Positions 8,398-59,506 of a stretch of 64,000 nucleotides of DNA are shown here, piece by piece. Where the stretch lies: positions 62,001-126,000 of the forward strand of contig NZ_JAGJCB010000006.1 of assembly GCF_017814435.1 (NCBI RefSeq). Reading direction: 5' to 3'. The stretch is from Mariniflexile gromovii (lineage in GTDB: Bacteria; Bacteroidota; Bacteroidia; Flavobacteriales; Flavobacteriaceae). Both the position numbers and the translations under genes were made by a program. The notes beneath the pieces are model-generated. The model was not told where the DNA came from, did not search any database, and worked only from the letters and a program-made list of their open reading frames with translations. The first letter of the stretch is position 1. Each line of letters starts with the position of its first letter.

Positions 8398-8457
8398 TAA
8401 AATTAAATCTTGATAAAAACTTTTAATATAAACCATGATTCATTTCCTATAAATAAA
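8398..8457 (-). promoter_or_regulatory. Promoter/operator copy 1 (upstream of GH31)
   Basis: In the coding direction the operator reads TTTATTTATA (8457-8448), spacer GGAAATGAATC, then ATGGTTTATA (8436-8427). The half-sites are 21 bp apart and the TGA of the spacer is in the same place as in the four other copies. A -7-like box TAATTTTA (8405-8398) starts 22 nt after the operator, resembling the Bacteroidota TAnnTTTG element. This is the most degenerate of the five copies, yet position and spacing are kept. It implies activation by a shared regulator near position -33 and supports the 8336 start of the GH31 gene. Confidence 0.65.
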
Positions 8458-8458
8458 C

Positions 8459-8512
8459 AACCCAAATAAGGCAAAAGCTGTTACTAAACGTCCACTTTGT
8501 CTTATTTGGGTT
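8459..8512 (-). terminator. Hairpin, probable terminator
   Basis: A perfect 12-bp inverted repeat, AACCCAAATAAG (8459-8470) and CTTATTTGGGTT (8501-8512), with partial further pairing inside, encloses about 30 nt. It lies just after the stop codon (8529) of the chimeric pseudogene and just before the operator of the next unit, so it separates two transcription units. Confidence 0.65.
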
Positions 8513-8528
8513 ATTTAAGAATATATAC

Positions 8529-10621
8529 TTACAATGCTACTTTTACATACATAGCTACGCATAGAATATTATTTTCTACATCATATAAATTGCTTTTTAA
8601 AGTTGTTTTTCCTGCATTTAGTTTCACTTTGAATTTCACAGATTTATCTTCTGGTTTAATAGAAATGGTTTTATTAAAATCCCCAATAATTAATTGTGCT
8701 TTAGCAATAGTTCGAATGCCATTTTCGAACCCATCATCATAGGAATCAATTATAGGTTTTTGTGATTCTTCAGACCAACGAAAAAAGTTCTATATCATAA
8801 GTTCCTTCATTTTCTATAATAATAATAATAATAATAATAATAATATCCCAATATCCATTCCCATCTGCTTTCATAAGGCAATCTGGATTGTCACAATAGC
8901 TTCCATTCCAATCGCTGACAGTAGCACCATAACGCTGCTGTCCTGCATATGCCGAACGGGTTAAATTGAAAACACGTTCGTTAGGAAACTCTTCCCTTCT
9001 ACCTTCGTACATCATTTTTGTAACCAAAAGTGAATATGGATTTTGAACTTCTTATATGGTCCTACAGTCGTAGTTACTTTTGTGTTAGTAACATCTTTTG
9101 GTTCGGTACCATTTAACCAAATAGAACTTACACCTTTATGAAACATAGTATCGCTTAACATTCGATAGAAGCGTTCACTAACACACTTGTCATAAATATC
9201 AACATAATTACTACTTTTTATTTTTTTAAGATTGTACTTCGCTTCTAAAGCATCGTTCTTTACCTGTGGCTATACCGAAACCCATCAACTTTAGGTTTAT
9301 TCTTTTTAGTTTATCAACCATGGCTTTGGGGTCTGGATATTTTGCTCTATCCCACTCTGGACCTTTCGTGCCTTTTGGCCAATAGAACCAATCTTGTACA
9401 ATATTATCAAACGGAATTTTTCGTGCTCTCATTTCACGAGTATTCACTAATAATTCTTCTTGATCGTGATAGCGTTCGCGACATTGCCAAAAACCATAAG
9501 CACTTTTAGCGAACATGGGAGCTGTTCCCGTTAGGTTTTGATATTGGGAAATAACCTCATCTGGATTCTCCCCTTGAATTAAATAATAATCAATAGCCTT
9601 TCCTTTGGTGCTACTAAATACGGTTTTATTAAAATCTGGTTCGTTGTAAAATAATTTTTCTGGAATTTTAGCACCCGTATTTTGAAAAACCACTTTATAG
9701 GTTTTACCAGCTGGCAAATGTTTTTTGCCTGAATATCTCCTAGGCATCCAAATGGTTGAATAATTAATTATATCATCACCATCAATGCTTACTTTAATCT
9801 CACCACGCATGCGCCCGTCATTATCGCTCAATGCTAAAAAAGTATATTCACCGGATTTATTTGGTGTAAACGTGGTTTCACGAATGTTTTTCTCGATAGC
9901 TTCTTTTGTAATATGAGAGGCAATATCTTCCTTTTCACCATCTACAGCAATGTCTGTATTACTCTTTTTTGTTTGAACTTTTGCTGTTGAAGAAAATTGA
10001 ATTTCATTTTGAGGTTGATTAAAATCCGTTAAACTAAAGTTTTACCAGTAAATTCCATAACCTATTGTAGAAACCAATAAGGGAATAGCGATTTCCTGAT
10101 TGTATTGCTGAAAACGAATAGGAACGTTTTTCAAATTCATACTACCACTTTGATACTGACCTAAACCCTACAGCGCTTCATCGCCCGCATGAAACCCCTA
10201 TGAAACCATATGTGTCTTGGTGGTATCTGCTTGAATGAAGGTATTTTAATTCGTTTTTGATACTAGGTTTATACAGTCCTTCGTTTGATAGTCAATAACA
10301 TCATCATTTTTCACAAATACATTTAAAGCATTGGTACTGATGGTGATTACATCTTTAGCTTCCTTTAATTTCCAAGCTACATTTTGAGGTTTTAAAACCG
10401 TAACATAAACTGGAATGGTGGAAGGTTTACTACCATTCTTCATTTTGTTGACGTGAATGATATACTCATTAATCACTTCAATGTTTATAATAATACTATC
10501 TTGTTGAATGGTTACTCCATGACCTGCCTTTTTAATGTTAACAAAAACTTGATTTACGCCCAGTAATTAAAAACACTAAAACCAACAAACTAAAACTCGC
10601 AGTTTTATTAAAATTTATCAT
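8529..10621 (-). pseudogene. Chimeric pseudogene: GH31 paralogue fused to a sulfatase C-terminus
   Basis: From the ATG at 10621 the minus strand encodes a close copy of the neighbouring GH31 enzyme, including signal peptide, PA14 insert and barrel, but broken by several frameshifts and stops (near 10550, 10255, 10200, 10040, 9285 and 9050). The catalytic nucleophile motif reads IWLNGTEP instead of IWLDGTEP (near 9105), an Asp-to-Asn change. Homology stops at AGQQRYGA (near 8925), just before the acid/base Asp, and continues directly as the C-terminal end of an S1 sulfatase: DWNGSYCDNP, GYWDI, then EGTYDIELFRWSEES after a one-base shift, and on to YVKVAL and TAA at 8529. An ATT trinucleotide tract interrupts the sulfatase part. 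A deletion between a GH31 copy and a vanished sulfatase gene explains this. Confidence 0.85.
8817..8846 (-). repeat. (TAA/ATT)n trinucleotide microsatellite
   Basis: Nine to ten tandem TAA units on the plus strand (8817-8846), read as a run of ten isoleucines in the sulfatase part of the chimeric pseudogene. It sits where a sulfatase would have a short beta-strand (W-x-I-x-I-x-x-x-G-T-Y), so it looks like slippage expansion in a gene no longer under selection. Confidence 0.85.
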
Positions 10622-58036: not shown

Positions 58037-58039
58037 GAA

Positions 58040-59365
58040 TTACTTTTTCAAAATAATATCTTCTAATTCTTCTAATGTTTTTCCTTTTGTTTCAGGCATC
58101 ATAAAGGCAACAAATAATAGTTGTAATACCATCATTCCTGTAAATACTAAAAATACAACACCTGGTCCAATCATGGGATGACTGAATAAAAACGGAATTA
58201 ACGATGGAATAATGGCCGCTAAAACCCAATGCGTTGAACTACCAAAAGCTTGTCCAGAAGCACGTAAATGATTCGGGAATATTTCAGAAATAAACACCCA
58301 AATTACGGCACCTTGACCAATAGCATGTGCTGCAATAAACAAAAACAAGAAAACAGGCACTGCCATTCCTGTCCAGCCTAAAAAAAACGCTGCAGATACT
58401 AAGCCTAAAGAAACTATATATCCTATGGAACCAATATACATCAATGTTTTTCTTCCTAATTTATCAATTAGAAAAACACCAAGCAATGTAAAAATAAGGT
58501 TGGTTACACCAATACCGATACTACTTAATAAGGCGGTACTTTCTCCCAAACCAGCTTCTTCAAAAATTCGAGGAGCATAATATAAAAATGCGTTGATACC
58601 TGAAAATTGATTAAAAAACGCTATTAAAAATGCCAACATTAAAGGAAATCTGTATTTTTTAATGAAAATAGTTTCAGACTTATCACTTTTATCAGAATGC
58701 GCATTGTATTCATGTATCAATGCATCGATATTCGCATTTGGCTCAATAATTTTTAATACGTCTCTTGCTTCTGTTTCTCTGCCCTGAGATAATAACCATC
58801 TTGGACTTTTTGGAACTTTCAAAGCAAATAAAATATATAAAACTGCTGGGATAGCTTCAACTCCTAACATCCAACGCCATGCGTTTTCACCTATTCCACT
58901 TAATAAATAATTGGACAAAAAGGCAATCATAATACCAAAAACAATATTGAACTGATACATGGCTACTAAACGTCCTCTGTCTTTTGCAGGTGCAATTTCC
59001 GAGATATATGCAGGAGCTGCTATCGTTGATGCCCCAACACCTAAACCACCTATAAAACGAGCAAAAGCAAACACAAGAGGATCATTAGCGAAAGCGGAAC
59101 CTATCGCAGAAACCGCAAATAAAACCCCAATAACAATTAAGGTGTTTTTTCGCCCATATTTATTTGTTGGAAAACCACCAAATATGGCACCAACGACTGT
59201 GCCCCATAGAGCTGCTCCCATAACTACCCAACCATGAAAAGAATCGGATGATTCCCAAATTGCCTGAAGTTTTTTATCGGCTCCAGATATAACAACTACG
59301 TCAAATCCGAATAAAAATCCAGCAAGTGCAGCTGTGATAGACCATAAAAGAATTTTTTTGTTCAT
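58040..59365 (-). CDS. MFS sugar transporter (sugar porter family)
   Basis: 441 residues with 12 hydrophobic segments. Sugar-porter signatures: GFLFGFDVVVISG in helix 1, GGFPTNKYGRKNTL (loop 2-3), FIGGLGVGASTIAAPAYISEIAP (helix 4 to loop 4-5), VPKSPRWLLSQGRE (loop 6-7), NQFSGINAFLYYAP in helix 7, DKLGRKTLMYIG, and PETKGKTLEELE at the end. Close in layout to proton-coupled XylE-type xylose/glucose carriers, located in the inner membrane. It would bring in a monosaccharide released in the periplasm, perhaps xylose or fucose. First gene after operator copy 5 (leader about 75 nt). Confidence 0.93.
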   Translation of the reverse strand: MNKKILLWSITAALAGFLFGFDVVVISGADKKLQAIWESSDSFHGWVVMGAALWGTVVGAIFGGFPTNKYGRKNTLIVIGVLFAVSAIGSAFANDPLVFAFARFIGGLGVGASTIAAPAYISEIAPAKDRGRLVAMYQFNIVFGIMIAFLSNYLLSGIGENAWRWMLGVEAIPAVLYILFALKVPKSPRWLLSQGRETEARDVLKIIEPNANIDALIHEYNAHSDKSDKSETIFIKKYRFPLMLAFLIAFFNQFSGINAFLYYAPRIFEEAGLGESTALLSSIGIGVTNLIFTLLGVFLIDKLGRKTLMYIGSIGYIVSLGLVSAAFFLGWTGMAVPVFLFLFIAAHAIGQGAVIWVFISEIFPNHLRASGQAFGSSTHWVLAAIIPSLIPFLFSHPMIGPGVVFLVFTGMMVLQLLFVAFMMPETKGKTLEELEDIILKK

Positions 59366-59446
59366 TTTTATATGTTTGTTTAAATAGTTTGTATTGTTTT
59401 TTTTTATTAATATTTATGTTTAAAATTTTACCATATTATCCAAAAA

Positions 59447-59506
59447 CAATAATAGTCAGATAAAATAAAAACTTGTATAATTTATGATTCAGAATATATA
59501 AACTAT
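59447..59506 (-). promoter_or_regulatory. Promoter/operator copy 5 (upstream of MFS permease operon)
   Basis: Coding direction: ATAGTTTATA (59506-59497), spacer TATTCTGAATC, ATAAATTATA (59485-59476), then -7-like TATTATTG (59454-59447) 22 nt after the operator. Same 21-bp period and spacer TGA as the other copies. The rest of the gap (59366-59446 and 59507-59589) shows nothing else I can name. Confidence 0.8.

What the first reader, a model, noticed from the sequence alone, without database searches (positions are those of the whole stretch)
8398..59506. One 31-bp operator with invariant spacer TGA in five promoter regions: a regulon signature
Seen: in the coding direction ATARTTTATA, 5 nt, TGA, 3 nt, ATARTTTATA occurs at 59506-59476, 36367-36337, 33834-33804, 23099-23069 and (degenerate) 8457-8427. 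Half-sites are always 21 bp apart, and spacer positions 6-8 are TGA in all five. In four copies a -7-like box (TAATATTG, TATTATTG, TAATTTTA, TAATTTCG) follows 21-22 nt after the operator. Known: Bacteroidota promoters use TAnnTTTG at -7, and PUL regulators often bind direct repeats near -33. Inference: a single activator controls at least five units of this locus.
Basis: partly seen in the sequence, partly recalled or inferred. Interest (0 to 1): 0.85.

Follow-up and report, generated by a model that had tools for sequence, protein, structure and literature searches.

The report
Operator of a polysaccharide-sensing hybrid regulator
A repeated DNA switch in front of several polysaccharide-degradation operons of this bacterium is very probably the landing site of one nearby sugar-sensing hybrid regulator, and the same switch also precedes matching enzyme genes on other pieces of the genome.

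Summary
In detail: the five 31-bp elements are where stated (0.02 expected by shuffling), each before a gene on the same strand. The "invariant spacer TGA" is one box of a longer repeat unit. The fuller operator is about 40 bp: two copies of (AA)TGARYYATARTTTATA 21 bp apart, the upstream one weaker, with a -7 box (TAnnnTTG) at exactly +22 in 35 of 65 sites (0.14 expected).

The likely regulator is P0001, a hybrid two-component system (HTCS) with an AraC-type DNA-binding domain, 13 kb beyond the window. In 397 family genomes the element (at most 1 mismatch) occurs in 14 of 20 with a close homologue and 3 of 377 without. At 2 mismatches, 82 of 109 elements in 23 HTCS genomes lie within 150 kb of it. 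75 loci of more distant HTCSs hold none at 15 bits. A matrix from other genomes finds 20 operators in 373 kb of this genome, all intergenic, including before SusC/SusD and four lyase-like genes, three of them on other contigs.

This is an HTCS operator of the direct-repeat, 21-bp type known from Bacteroides: a new, well-supported member of a known kind. Binding and activation are inferred.

The parts
59476..59506 (-). operator before MFS sugar transporter (58040-59365) and the gene run below it; -7 box TATTATTG at 59454-59447; start site expected near 59442 (inferred)
   Evidence: matrix trained without this genome 26.4 bits
36337..36367 (-). operator before heparinase II/III-like lyase (33979-36267); -7 box TAATATTG at 36315-36308
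   Evidence: 41.8 bits; G005 has an operator before an 86% identical protein
33804..33834 (-). operator before kelch/NANM-like protein (32648-33637) and following genes; only the TTG of a -7 box at the expected place
   Evidence: 40.6 bits; G001 has the identical 31 bp before a 92% identical protein
23069..23099 (-). operator before GH95 gene (20981-22924); -7-like TAATTTCG at 23048-23041
   Evidence: 42.1 bits; G001 has an operator before a 77% identical protein
8427..8457 (-). degenerate operator before GH31 gene (5688-8387); -7 box TAATTTTA at 8405-8398; its first half-site runs into the tail of a hairpin
   Evidence: 3 mismatches; 26.5 bits
5688..8387 (-). target gene: GH31
20981..22924 (-). 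target gene: GH95 (C-terminal part in a separate frame at 20429-20950)
32648..33637 (-). target gene: kelch-repeat / NANM-like
33979..36267 (-). target gene: heparinase II/III-like lyase
58040..59365 (-). target gene: Sugar_tr / MFS transporter
64000..64000 (-). marker only: the proposed regulator P0001 lies beyond the window's right end at G000:C49:139320-143489 (minus; window scale 77320-81489); divergent operators at window scale 64956-64986 (-) and 65071-65101 (+), the latter before SusC/SusD

Best explanation
The elements are activator operators of one hybrid two-component system, P0001 (G000:C49:139320-143489). Inferred mechanism: an oligosaccharide from the target polysaccharide binds the periplasmic propeller of the HTCS; phosphate passes from the His of SHEFRTP to the Asp of SDVMMP; the AraC-type domain is released and two of them bind in tandem on one face of the DNA, 21 bp (two turns) apart. 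Each has two helix-turn-helices, one probably reading TGA and the other the ATARTTTATA box about one turn away. The downstream unit ends near -34, where a -33 element would be expected and none is conserved, so that it can help sigma at the -7 box. Shown here in silico: the repeat structure, the preferred 21-nt gap to the -7 box, the tie between operator and HTCS across genomes, and the intergenic placement before polysaccharide-degradation genes. Inferred: binding, activation, phosphorylation and ligand.
For: HTCS domains: Reg_prop, Y_Y_Y, HisKA, HATPase_c, Response_reg, HTH_18; SHEFRTP 859, SDVMMP 1183, CHIP 1206. Co-occurrence: 14 of 20 genomes with a close HTCS homologue (E at most 1e-280) have an element with at most 1 mismatch, against 3 of 377 without; Fisher p about 1e-18. 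At 2 mismatches 18 of 18 of those genomes searched again have one. Linkage: of 109 hits in 23 HTCS genomes 82 lie within 150 kb of the HTCS and 35 within 20 kb; 20 of 23 genomes have one within 20 kb, 22 of 23 within 150 kb. Specificity: 5 of 5 named homologue loci (50-58% identity) hold an operator of 20 bits or more just upstream of a SusC/SusD pair related to that of this genome; 75 loci of more distant HTCSs (1.31 Mb) hold none at 15 bits or more, one at 12.4. DNA-binding domains: operator-linked homologues 60-94% identical to P0001, seven other HTCS-like proteins of this genome (E at most 1e-40) 34-44%. Promoter geometry: TAnnnTTG at +22 in 35 of 65 sites, 0.14 in shuffled sequence. Placement: 57 of 57 matrix hits outside ORFs of 100 aa or more; 54 of 57 lie 47-289 nt before a same-strand ORF. 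Known HTCS motifs of B. thetaiotaomicron are direct repeats with a mean distance of 21 bp (PMC3878776, section 8).
Against: No binding or expression data. Co-occurrence and linkage could in part reflect inheritance of the whole locus. Second HTCS paralogues in G001 and G005 (57% overall, DNA-binding domain 67 and 70%) have no element with at most 2 mismatches on their contigs, so specificity may change at modest divergence. In G338 none of 10 elements lies within 150 kb of its HTCS; in G019, 5 of 10 lie elsewhere. Six of 20 HTCS genomes have no element with at most 1 mismatch. Two window copies score lower (26.4 and 26.5 bits), and 7 of 65 sites have no -7-like box at the expected place.
Confidence: 0.9

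Rival explanations
1. The operator belongs to another regulator encoded in the same locus, such as the GntR-type regulator at L025:13549-14592 or an unrecognised protein, and follows the HTCS only because the locus is inherited as a block.
For: A GntR-type regulator lies beside rhamnose-catabolism genes on the same contig; many operator-bearing genes are shared between G000, G001 and G005.
Against: Tandem direct repeats about 21 bp apart are the published HTCS architecture, whereas GntR-type sites are usually palindromes (recalled). In five named, more distant loci the operator is again beside the HTCS and SusC/SusD. No other AraC-type domain was found among the proteins of this locus that were scanned with Pfam; not every ORF was scanned.
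Confidence: 0.05
2. The sites are repressor sites: the HTCS, or a related protein, blocks these promoters.
For: PMC11253607 (passages) reports that BT2391, an HTCS that departs from the S/CHIP-DK consensus, represses its PUL.
Against: P0001 has the CHIP part of that consensus; the element ends upstream of the -7 box, not over it, at a preferred distance, and no conserved -33 element is seen: the layout of an activator.
Confidence: 0.04
3. The elements are chance or repeat-derived AT-rich sequence.
For: The half-site is AT-rich; 7 of the 24 genome hits with up to 3 mismatches are ATAATTG tandem repeats.
Against: 0.02 expected in the window; reversed-pattern control 0 against 14 in the genome at 2 mismatches; period test 29 against 0.29; no matrix hit of 12 bits or more in three Markov copies of the scanned sequence; 57 of 57 matrix hits outside ORFs of 100 aa or more.
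Confidence: 0.01

Closest known systems
HTCS regulons of Bacteroides thetaiotaomicron (Ravcheev et al. 2013, PMC3878776; section 8 and passages seen)
   Same: Direct repeat with a mean distance of 21 bp, AraC-type HTCS encoded beside susC/susD, some distant targets (BT4675, BT2680, BT4187-85). HTCS_Man sites are described as two 16-bp sites with a 5-bp spacer, the dimensions found here for TGARYYATARTTTATA.
   Different: The logos themselves were not seen, so the box sequences were not compared. Different family of bacteria, 20 operators in the parts scanned here, and a preferred 21-nt distance to the -7 box, which the section read does not describe.
Carrageenan regulon of Zobellia galactanivorans (PMC5698469; passages seen)
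   Same: A marine flavobacterial regulon for a sulfated polysaccharide with genes distal to the main locus, and an AraC-family regulator (CgrA).
   Different: CgrA is described as an AraC-family regulator, not an HTCS; the term 'binding motif' does not occur in the main text.
SusR-type operators (PMC3878776, passages seen)
   Same: Direct repeats in PUL promoters.
   Different: SusR sites lie 67 or 77 bp apart; here 21 bp.

Membership tests
HTCS operator (direct-repeat type) | two direct copies of one unit about 21 bp apart | tested here: met
HTCS operator (direct-repeat type) | lies upstream of susC/susD and enzyme operons near an HTCS gene | tested here: met
   five named relatives
HTCS operator (direct-repeat type) | conserved together with orthologues of the HTCS and absent near other HTCSs | tested here: met
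   exceptions: second paralogues of G001 and G005, and G338
HTCS operator (direct-repeat type) | bound by the HTCS DNA-binding domain | not testable with these tools
   needs EMSA or footprint
HTCS regulator | periplasmic propeller, kinase, receiver and AraC-type HTH in one chain | tested here: met
HTCS regulator | phospho-acceptor His and Asp motifs present | tested here: met
   SHEFRTP and SDVMMP found by string match; the roles of the residues are recalled
HTCS regulator | S/CHIP-DK autoinhibition motif | tested here: inconclusive
   CHIP present at 1206; the D-K pair was not located
SusR operator | 67- or 77-bp distance between sites | tested here: not met
   period 21 bp
sigma-A promoter of flavobacteria | -7 box TAnnTTTG | tested here: inconclusive
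   the looser TAnnnTTG is at +22 in 35 of 65 sites, the exact TAnnTTTG in 6 of 65; consensus and its position -12 to -5 from PMC9723704

The most novel reading that the evidence does not exclude
One HTCS orthologue group, with close homologues in 17 of 237 sampled genera of the window's family (Flavobacteriaceae by its named relatives), has kept the same 40-bp operator at a preferred distance from the -7 box. In this genome the operator holds a dispersed regulon together: lyases that in two relatives lie on the HTCS contig lie on another contig here, at least about 110 kb from the nearest operator of the main locus, yet keep the operator. The operator then acts in place of a -33 element and can serve as a tag for unannotated members of the pathway.
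Probability: 0.55. Interest if true: 0.55.

Novelty: new member of a known kind. Interest (0 to 1): 0.45.

Why it matters
HTCSs are numerous in Bacteroidota, and few have an assigned operator outside Bacteroides (recalled). Five literature searches showed no title or abstract start that describes an HTCS operator in Flavobacteriaceae; three of the listings were capped (20 of 58, 12 of 74, 10 of 87), so this is weak evidence of absence. Here one regulator, its operator and a promoter geometry are tied together across more than 20 genomes. That gives a cheap, exact binding test, and a tag that points to unannotated secreted proteins (such as the 308-aa protein on C14) as likely parts of one pathway against a sulfated polysaccharide.

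Tried and rejected
TGA as an invariant spacer mark: rejected; it belongs to the repeat unit. SusR-type sites: rejected on spacing. Chance: rejected. The HTCS paralogue on C50 (C50:23073-25373) as owner of the four C50 operators: disfavoured, its DNA-binding domain is 38.5% identical to P0001. Substrate: not settled. GH29, GH95, GH97, GH141-like, GH43, GH28 and GH88 families, sulfatases, lyases and a rhamnulose-1-phosphate aldolase gene suggest a sulfated polysaccharide with fucose or rhamnose and uronic acid. PDB searches with three lyase-like proteins gave CBM and accessory-domain hits, none or distant lyases. The C23 site (L022) scores 23.1 bits, 86 nt before a DUF7133 protein, but has no clear -7 box; left open and not in the count of 20. 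No structure was predicted.

Limits of the counts. The 65-site set (76 rows before overlapping and opposite-strand duplicates were dropped) was found by half-sites alone, but in stretches partly chosen by the pattern with TGA, so the TGA share may be a little high. The matrix was trained on 50 sites from other genomes, three of which score under 22 bits and may be chance; it was tested on 372,710 bp of this genome, not the whole, and most of those stretches were fetched because they hold pattern hits. In 'intergenic' means not inside an ORF of 100 aa or more. One search uses the best HTCS of each genome, leaves out G003 (36% homologue, no element) and the second paralogues, and its binomial p treats sites as independent, which they are not.
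Full report
Observation. The pattern ATARTTTATA-N5-TGA-N3-ATARTTTATA matches at the five stated places, with 0, 0, 0, 1 and 3 mismatches; shuffles give 0.02. The long ORFs of the window run on the minus strand and encode sulfatases, GH29, GH95, GH97, GH31, GH43 and GH28 enzymes, heparinase-like lyases, esterases and an MFS transporter: a polysaccharide utilisation locus.

Genome-wide. The window is G000:C49:62001-126000. With up to 3 mismatches the genome has 24 matches (reversed-pattern control 1). 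Seven of the 24 are ATAATTG tandem repeats on C1 and C17. Sixteen lie on C49 (10), C12 (1), C14 (1), C28 (2) and C50 (2), and one is a weak site on C23. With up to 2 mismatches there are 14 against a control of 0. Two divergent operators sit just beyond the right end of the window, one before SusC/SusD and one before the neighbouring gene.

The real unit. Searching by half-sites alone in stretches from 12 genomes gave 76 rows, 65 after removal of duplicates. The logo reads (AA)TGARYYATARTTTATA, 3 variable bases, WW-TGARYY-ATARTTTATA: the same unit twice, 21 bp apart, the upstream TG box weaker (upstream TG in 20 of 65, spacer TG in 50 of 65; TGA in 16 and 37 of 65; G at position 17 in 58 of 65). 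So the TGA is a box of the repeat, about one helical turn from the middle of the next ATARTTTATA. AraC-type domains carry two helix-turn-helices that reach adjacent major grooves (recalled), which fits. The period is not an artefact of the pattern: 29 pairs at 21 bp, mean 0.29 at other distances.

Promoter. TAnnnTTG starts exactly 22 nt after the operator in 35 of 65 sites, and in at most 1 site at any other offset. Another 9 have TAnnnTT[ACT] and 5 TAnnTTGY there, 2 have a box one base off, 7 have only a TTG and 7 nothing; shuffled downstream sequence gives 0.14 for the first class. The exact sigma-A consensus TAnnTTTG is at +22 in only 6 of 65. In Flavobacterium psychrophilum that box lies at -12 to -5 (PMC9723704, passages), which puts the 31 bp at about -64 to -34. 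No conserved -33 box follows the operator. This is the layout of an activator that takes the place of the -33 contact (inference).

Regulator. 13 kb beyond the window's right end lies P0001, a 1389-aa HTCS with propeller repeats, Y_Y_Y, kinase, receiver and AraC-type HTH. Its best sequence matches in the PDB are hybrid two-component sensor domains and a 279-aa HTCS chain, 12aw, matching receiver plus DNA-binding domain. Within the genus, G001 and G005 (88 and 83% identical HTCS) have 9 elements each, G002 and G004 (54%) two each, G003 (36%) none. In 397 family genomes the element with at most 1 mismatch is in 14 of 20 with the HTCS (E at most 1e-280) and 3 of 377 without; one of the three is a tandem repeat. 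At 2 mismatches 18 of 18 of the HTCS genomes searched again have elements, 6 of which had none at 1 mismatch, and 82 of 109 elements in 23 HTCS genomes lie within 150 kb of the HTCS. Five named loci (Flavobacterium fluviatile, two Maribacter, F. seoulense, F. ajazii) hold operators of 20 bits or more just upstream of their SusC/SusD pair, while 75 loci of more distant HTCSs hold none at 15 bits or more. The DNA-binding domains follow suit: 60-94% in operator-linked homologues, 34-44% in seven other HTCS-like proteins of this genome. Against: second paralogues in G001 and G005 without elements on their contigs, and G338 with none of 10 elements within 150 kb of its HTCS. These named relatives make the family Flavobacteriaceae (inference).

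Regulon. A matrix trained on 50 sites from other genomes gives 20 operators of 20 bits or more in the scanned 372,710 bp of this genome; three Markov copies give 0 at 12 bits or more. Of the 20, 12 are on C49 (5 in the window), 4 on C50, 2 on C28 and 1 each on C12 and C14. With G001 (14) and G005 (23) there are 57, all outside ORFs of 100 aa or more although 69-94% of the sequence is open frame. 54 of 57 lie 47-289 nt before a same-strand ORF; the three others are at 484, 2773 and 80,114 nt, the last the reverse strand of a site that also matches forward. Targets include SusC/SusD, a GH88-family gene next to the HTCS, a GH29-family gene, and four lyase-like proteins (PF05426) with CBM6 and a type IX secretion tail, one on C49, one on C28 and two on C50. 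No site of 20 bits precedes the HTCS gene itself. The C50 lyases have relatives of up to 79% identity, and the C28 lyase of 43-48%, among operator-bearing genes on the HTCS contigs of G001 and G005. In this genome the C50 sites are at least about 110 kb from the nearest C49 site, computed from contig lengths and site positions; for C12, C14 and C28 the distance is unknown.

Known or new. Direct-repeat HTCS operators with a mean distance of 21 bp were described in B. thetaiotaomicron (PMC3878776, section 8; passages), some with distant targets. This case is a new member of that kind. Five searches, judged by titles and abstract starts and three of them capped, showed no HTCS operator in Flavobacteriaceae; that does not prove absence. 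Binding and activation remain to be shown.

Noticed in passing
window 20429-20950 and 20981-22924 (-): A GH95 enzyme is split over two ORFs; the C-terminal part is in a separate one.
   Followed up: no
window 9226-9831 (-): A 201-aa ORF with only the start of a GH31 barrel, in a stretch with no other ORF of 90 aa or more between 8460 and 10660; looks like a gene remnant.
   Followed up: no
window 8440-8530 (-): A strong hairpin (z -4.3) runs into the degenerate operator, so a terminator-like tail overlaps its first half-site; a weaker hairpin (z -2.0) abuts the 59476 operator.
   Followed up: partly
G000:C49:30399-35312 (L025:8399-13312): Rhamnose-type catabolism genes (FGGY kinase, isomerase-like, rhamnulose-1-phosphate aldolase/dehydrogenase) beside a GntR-type regulator at L025:13549-14592.
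   Followed up: partly
L030:11374-12300 (C14) and L029:18875-19999 (C12): Two operator-bearing genes on other contigs: a 308-aa protein with only a type IX secretion tail recognised, and a contig-end fragment resembling alpha-galacturonidase (far below the cut-off).
   Followed up: partly
L022:1501-1531 (C23): A 23.1-bit operator-like site before a DUF7133 protein, without a clear -7 box.
   Followed up: partly
G001:C2:508885-513036 and G005:C9:63694-67827: Second HTCS paralogues (57% identical to P0001) with no element on their contigs; they may have changed specificity.
   Followed up: no
G000:C1:100444-100509 and C17:11959-11989: ATAATTG 7-bp tandem repeats that match the pattern with 3 mismatches.
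   Followed up: no
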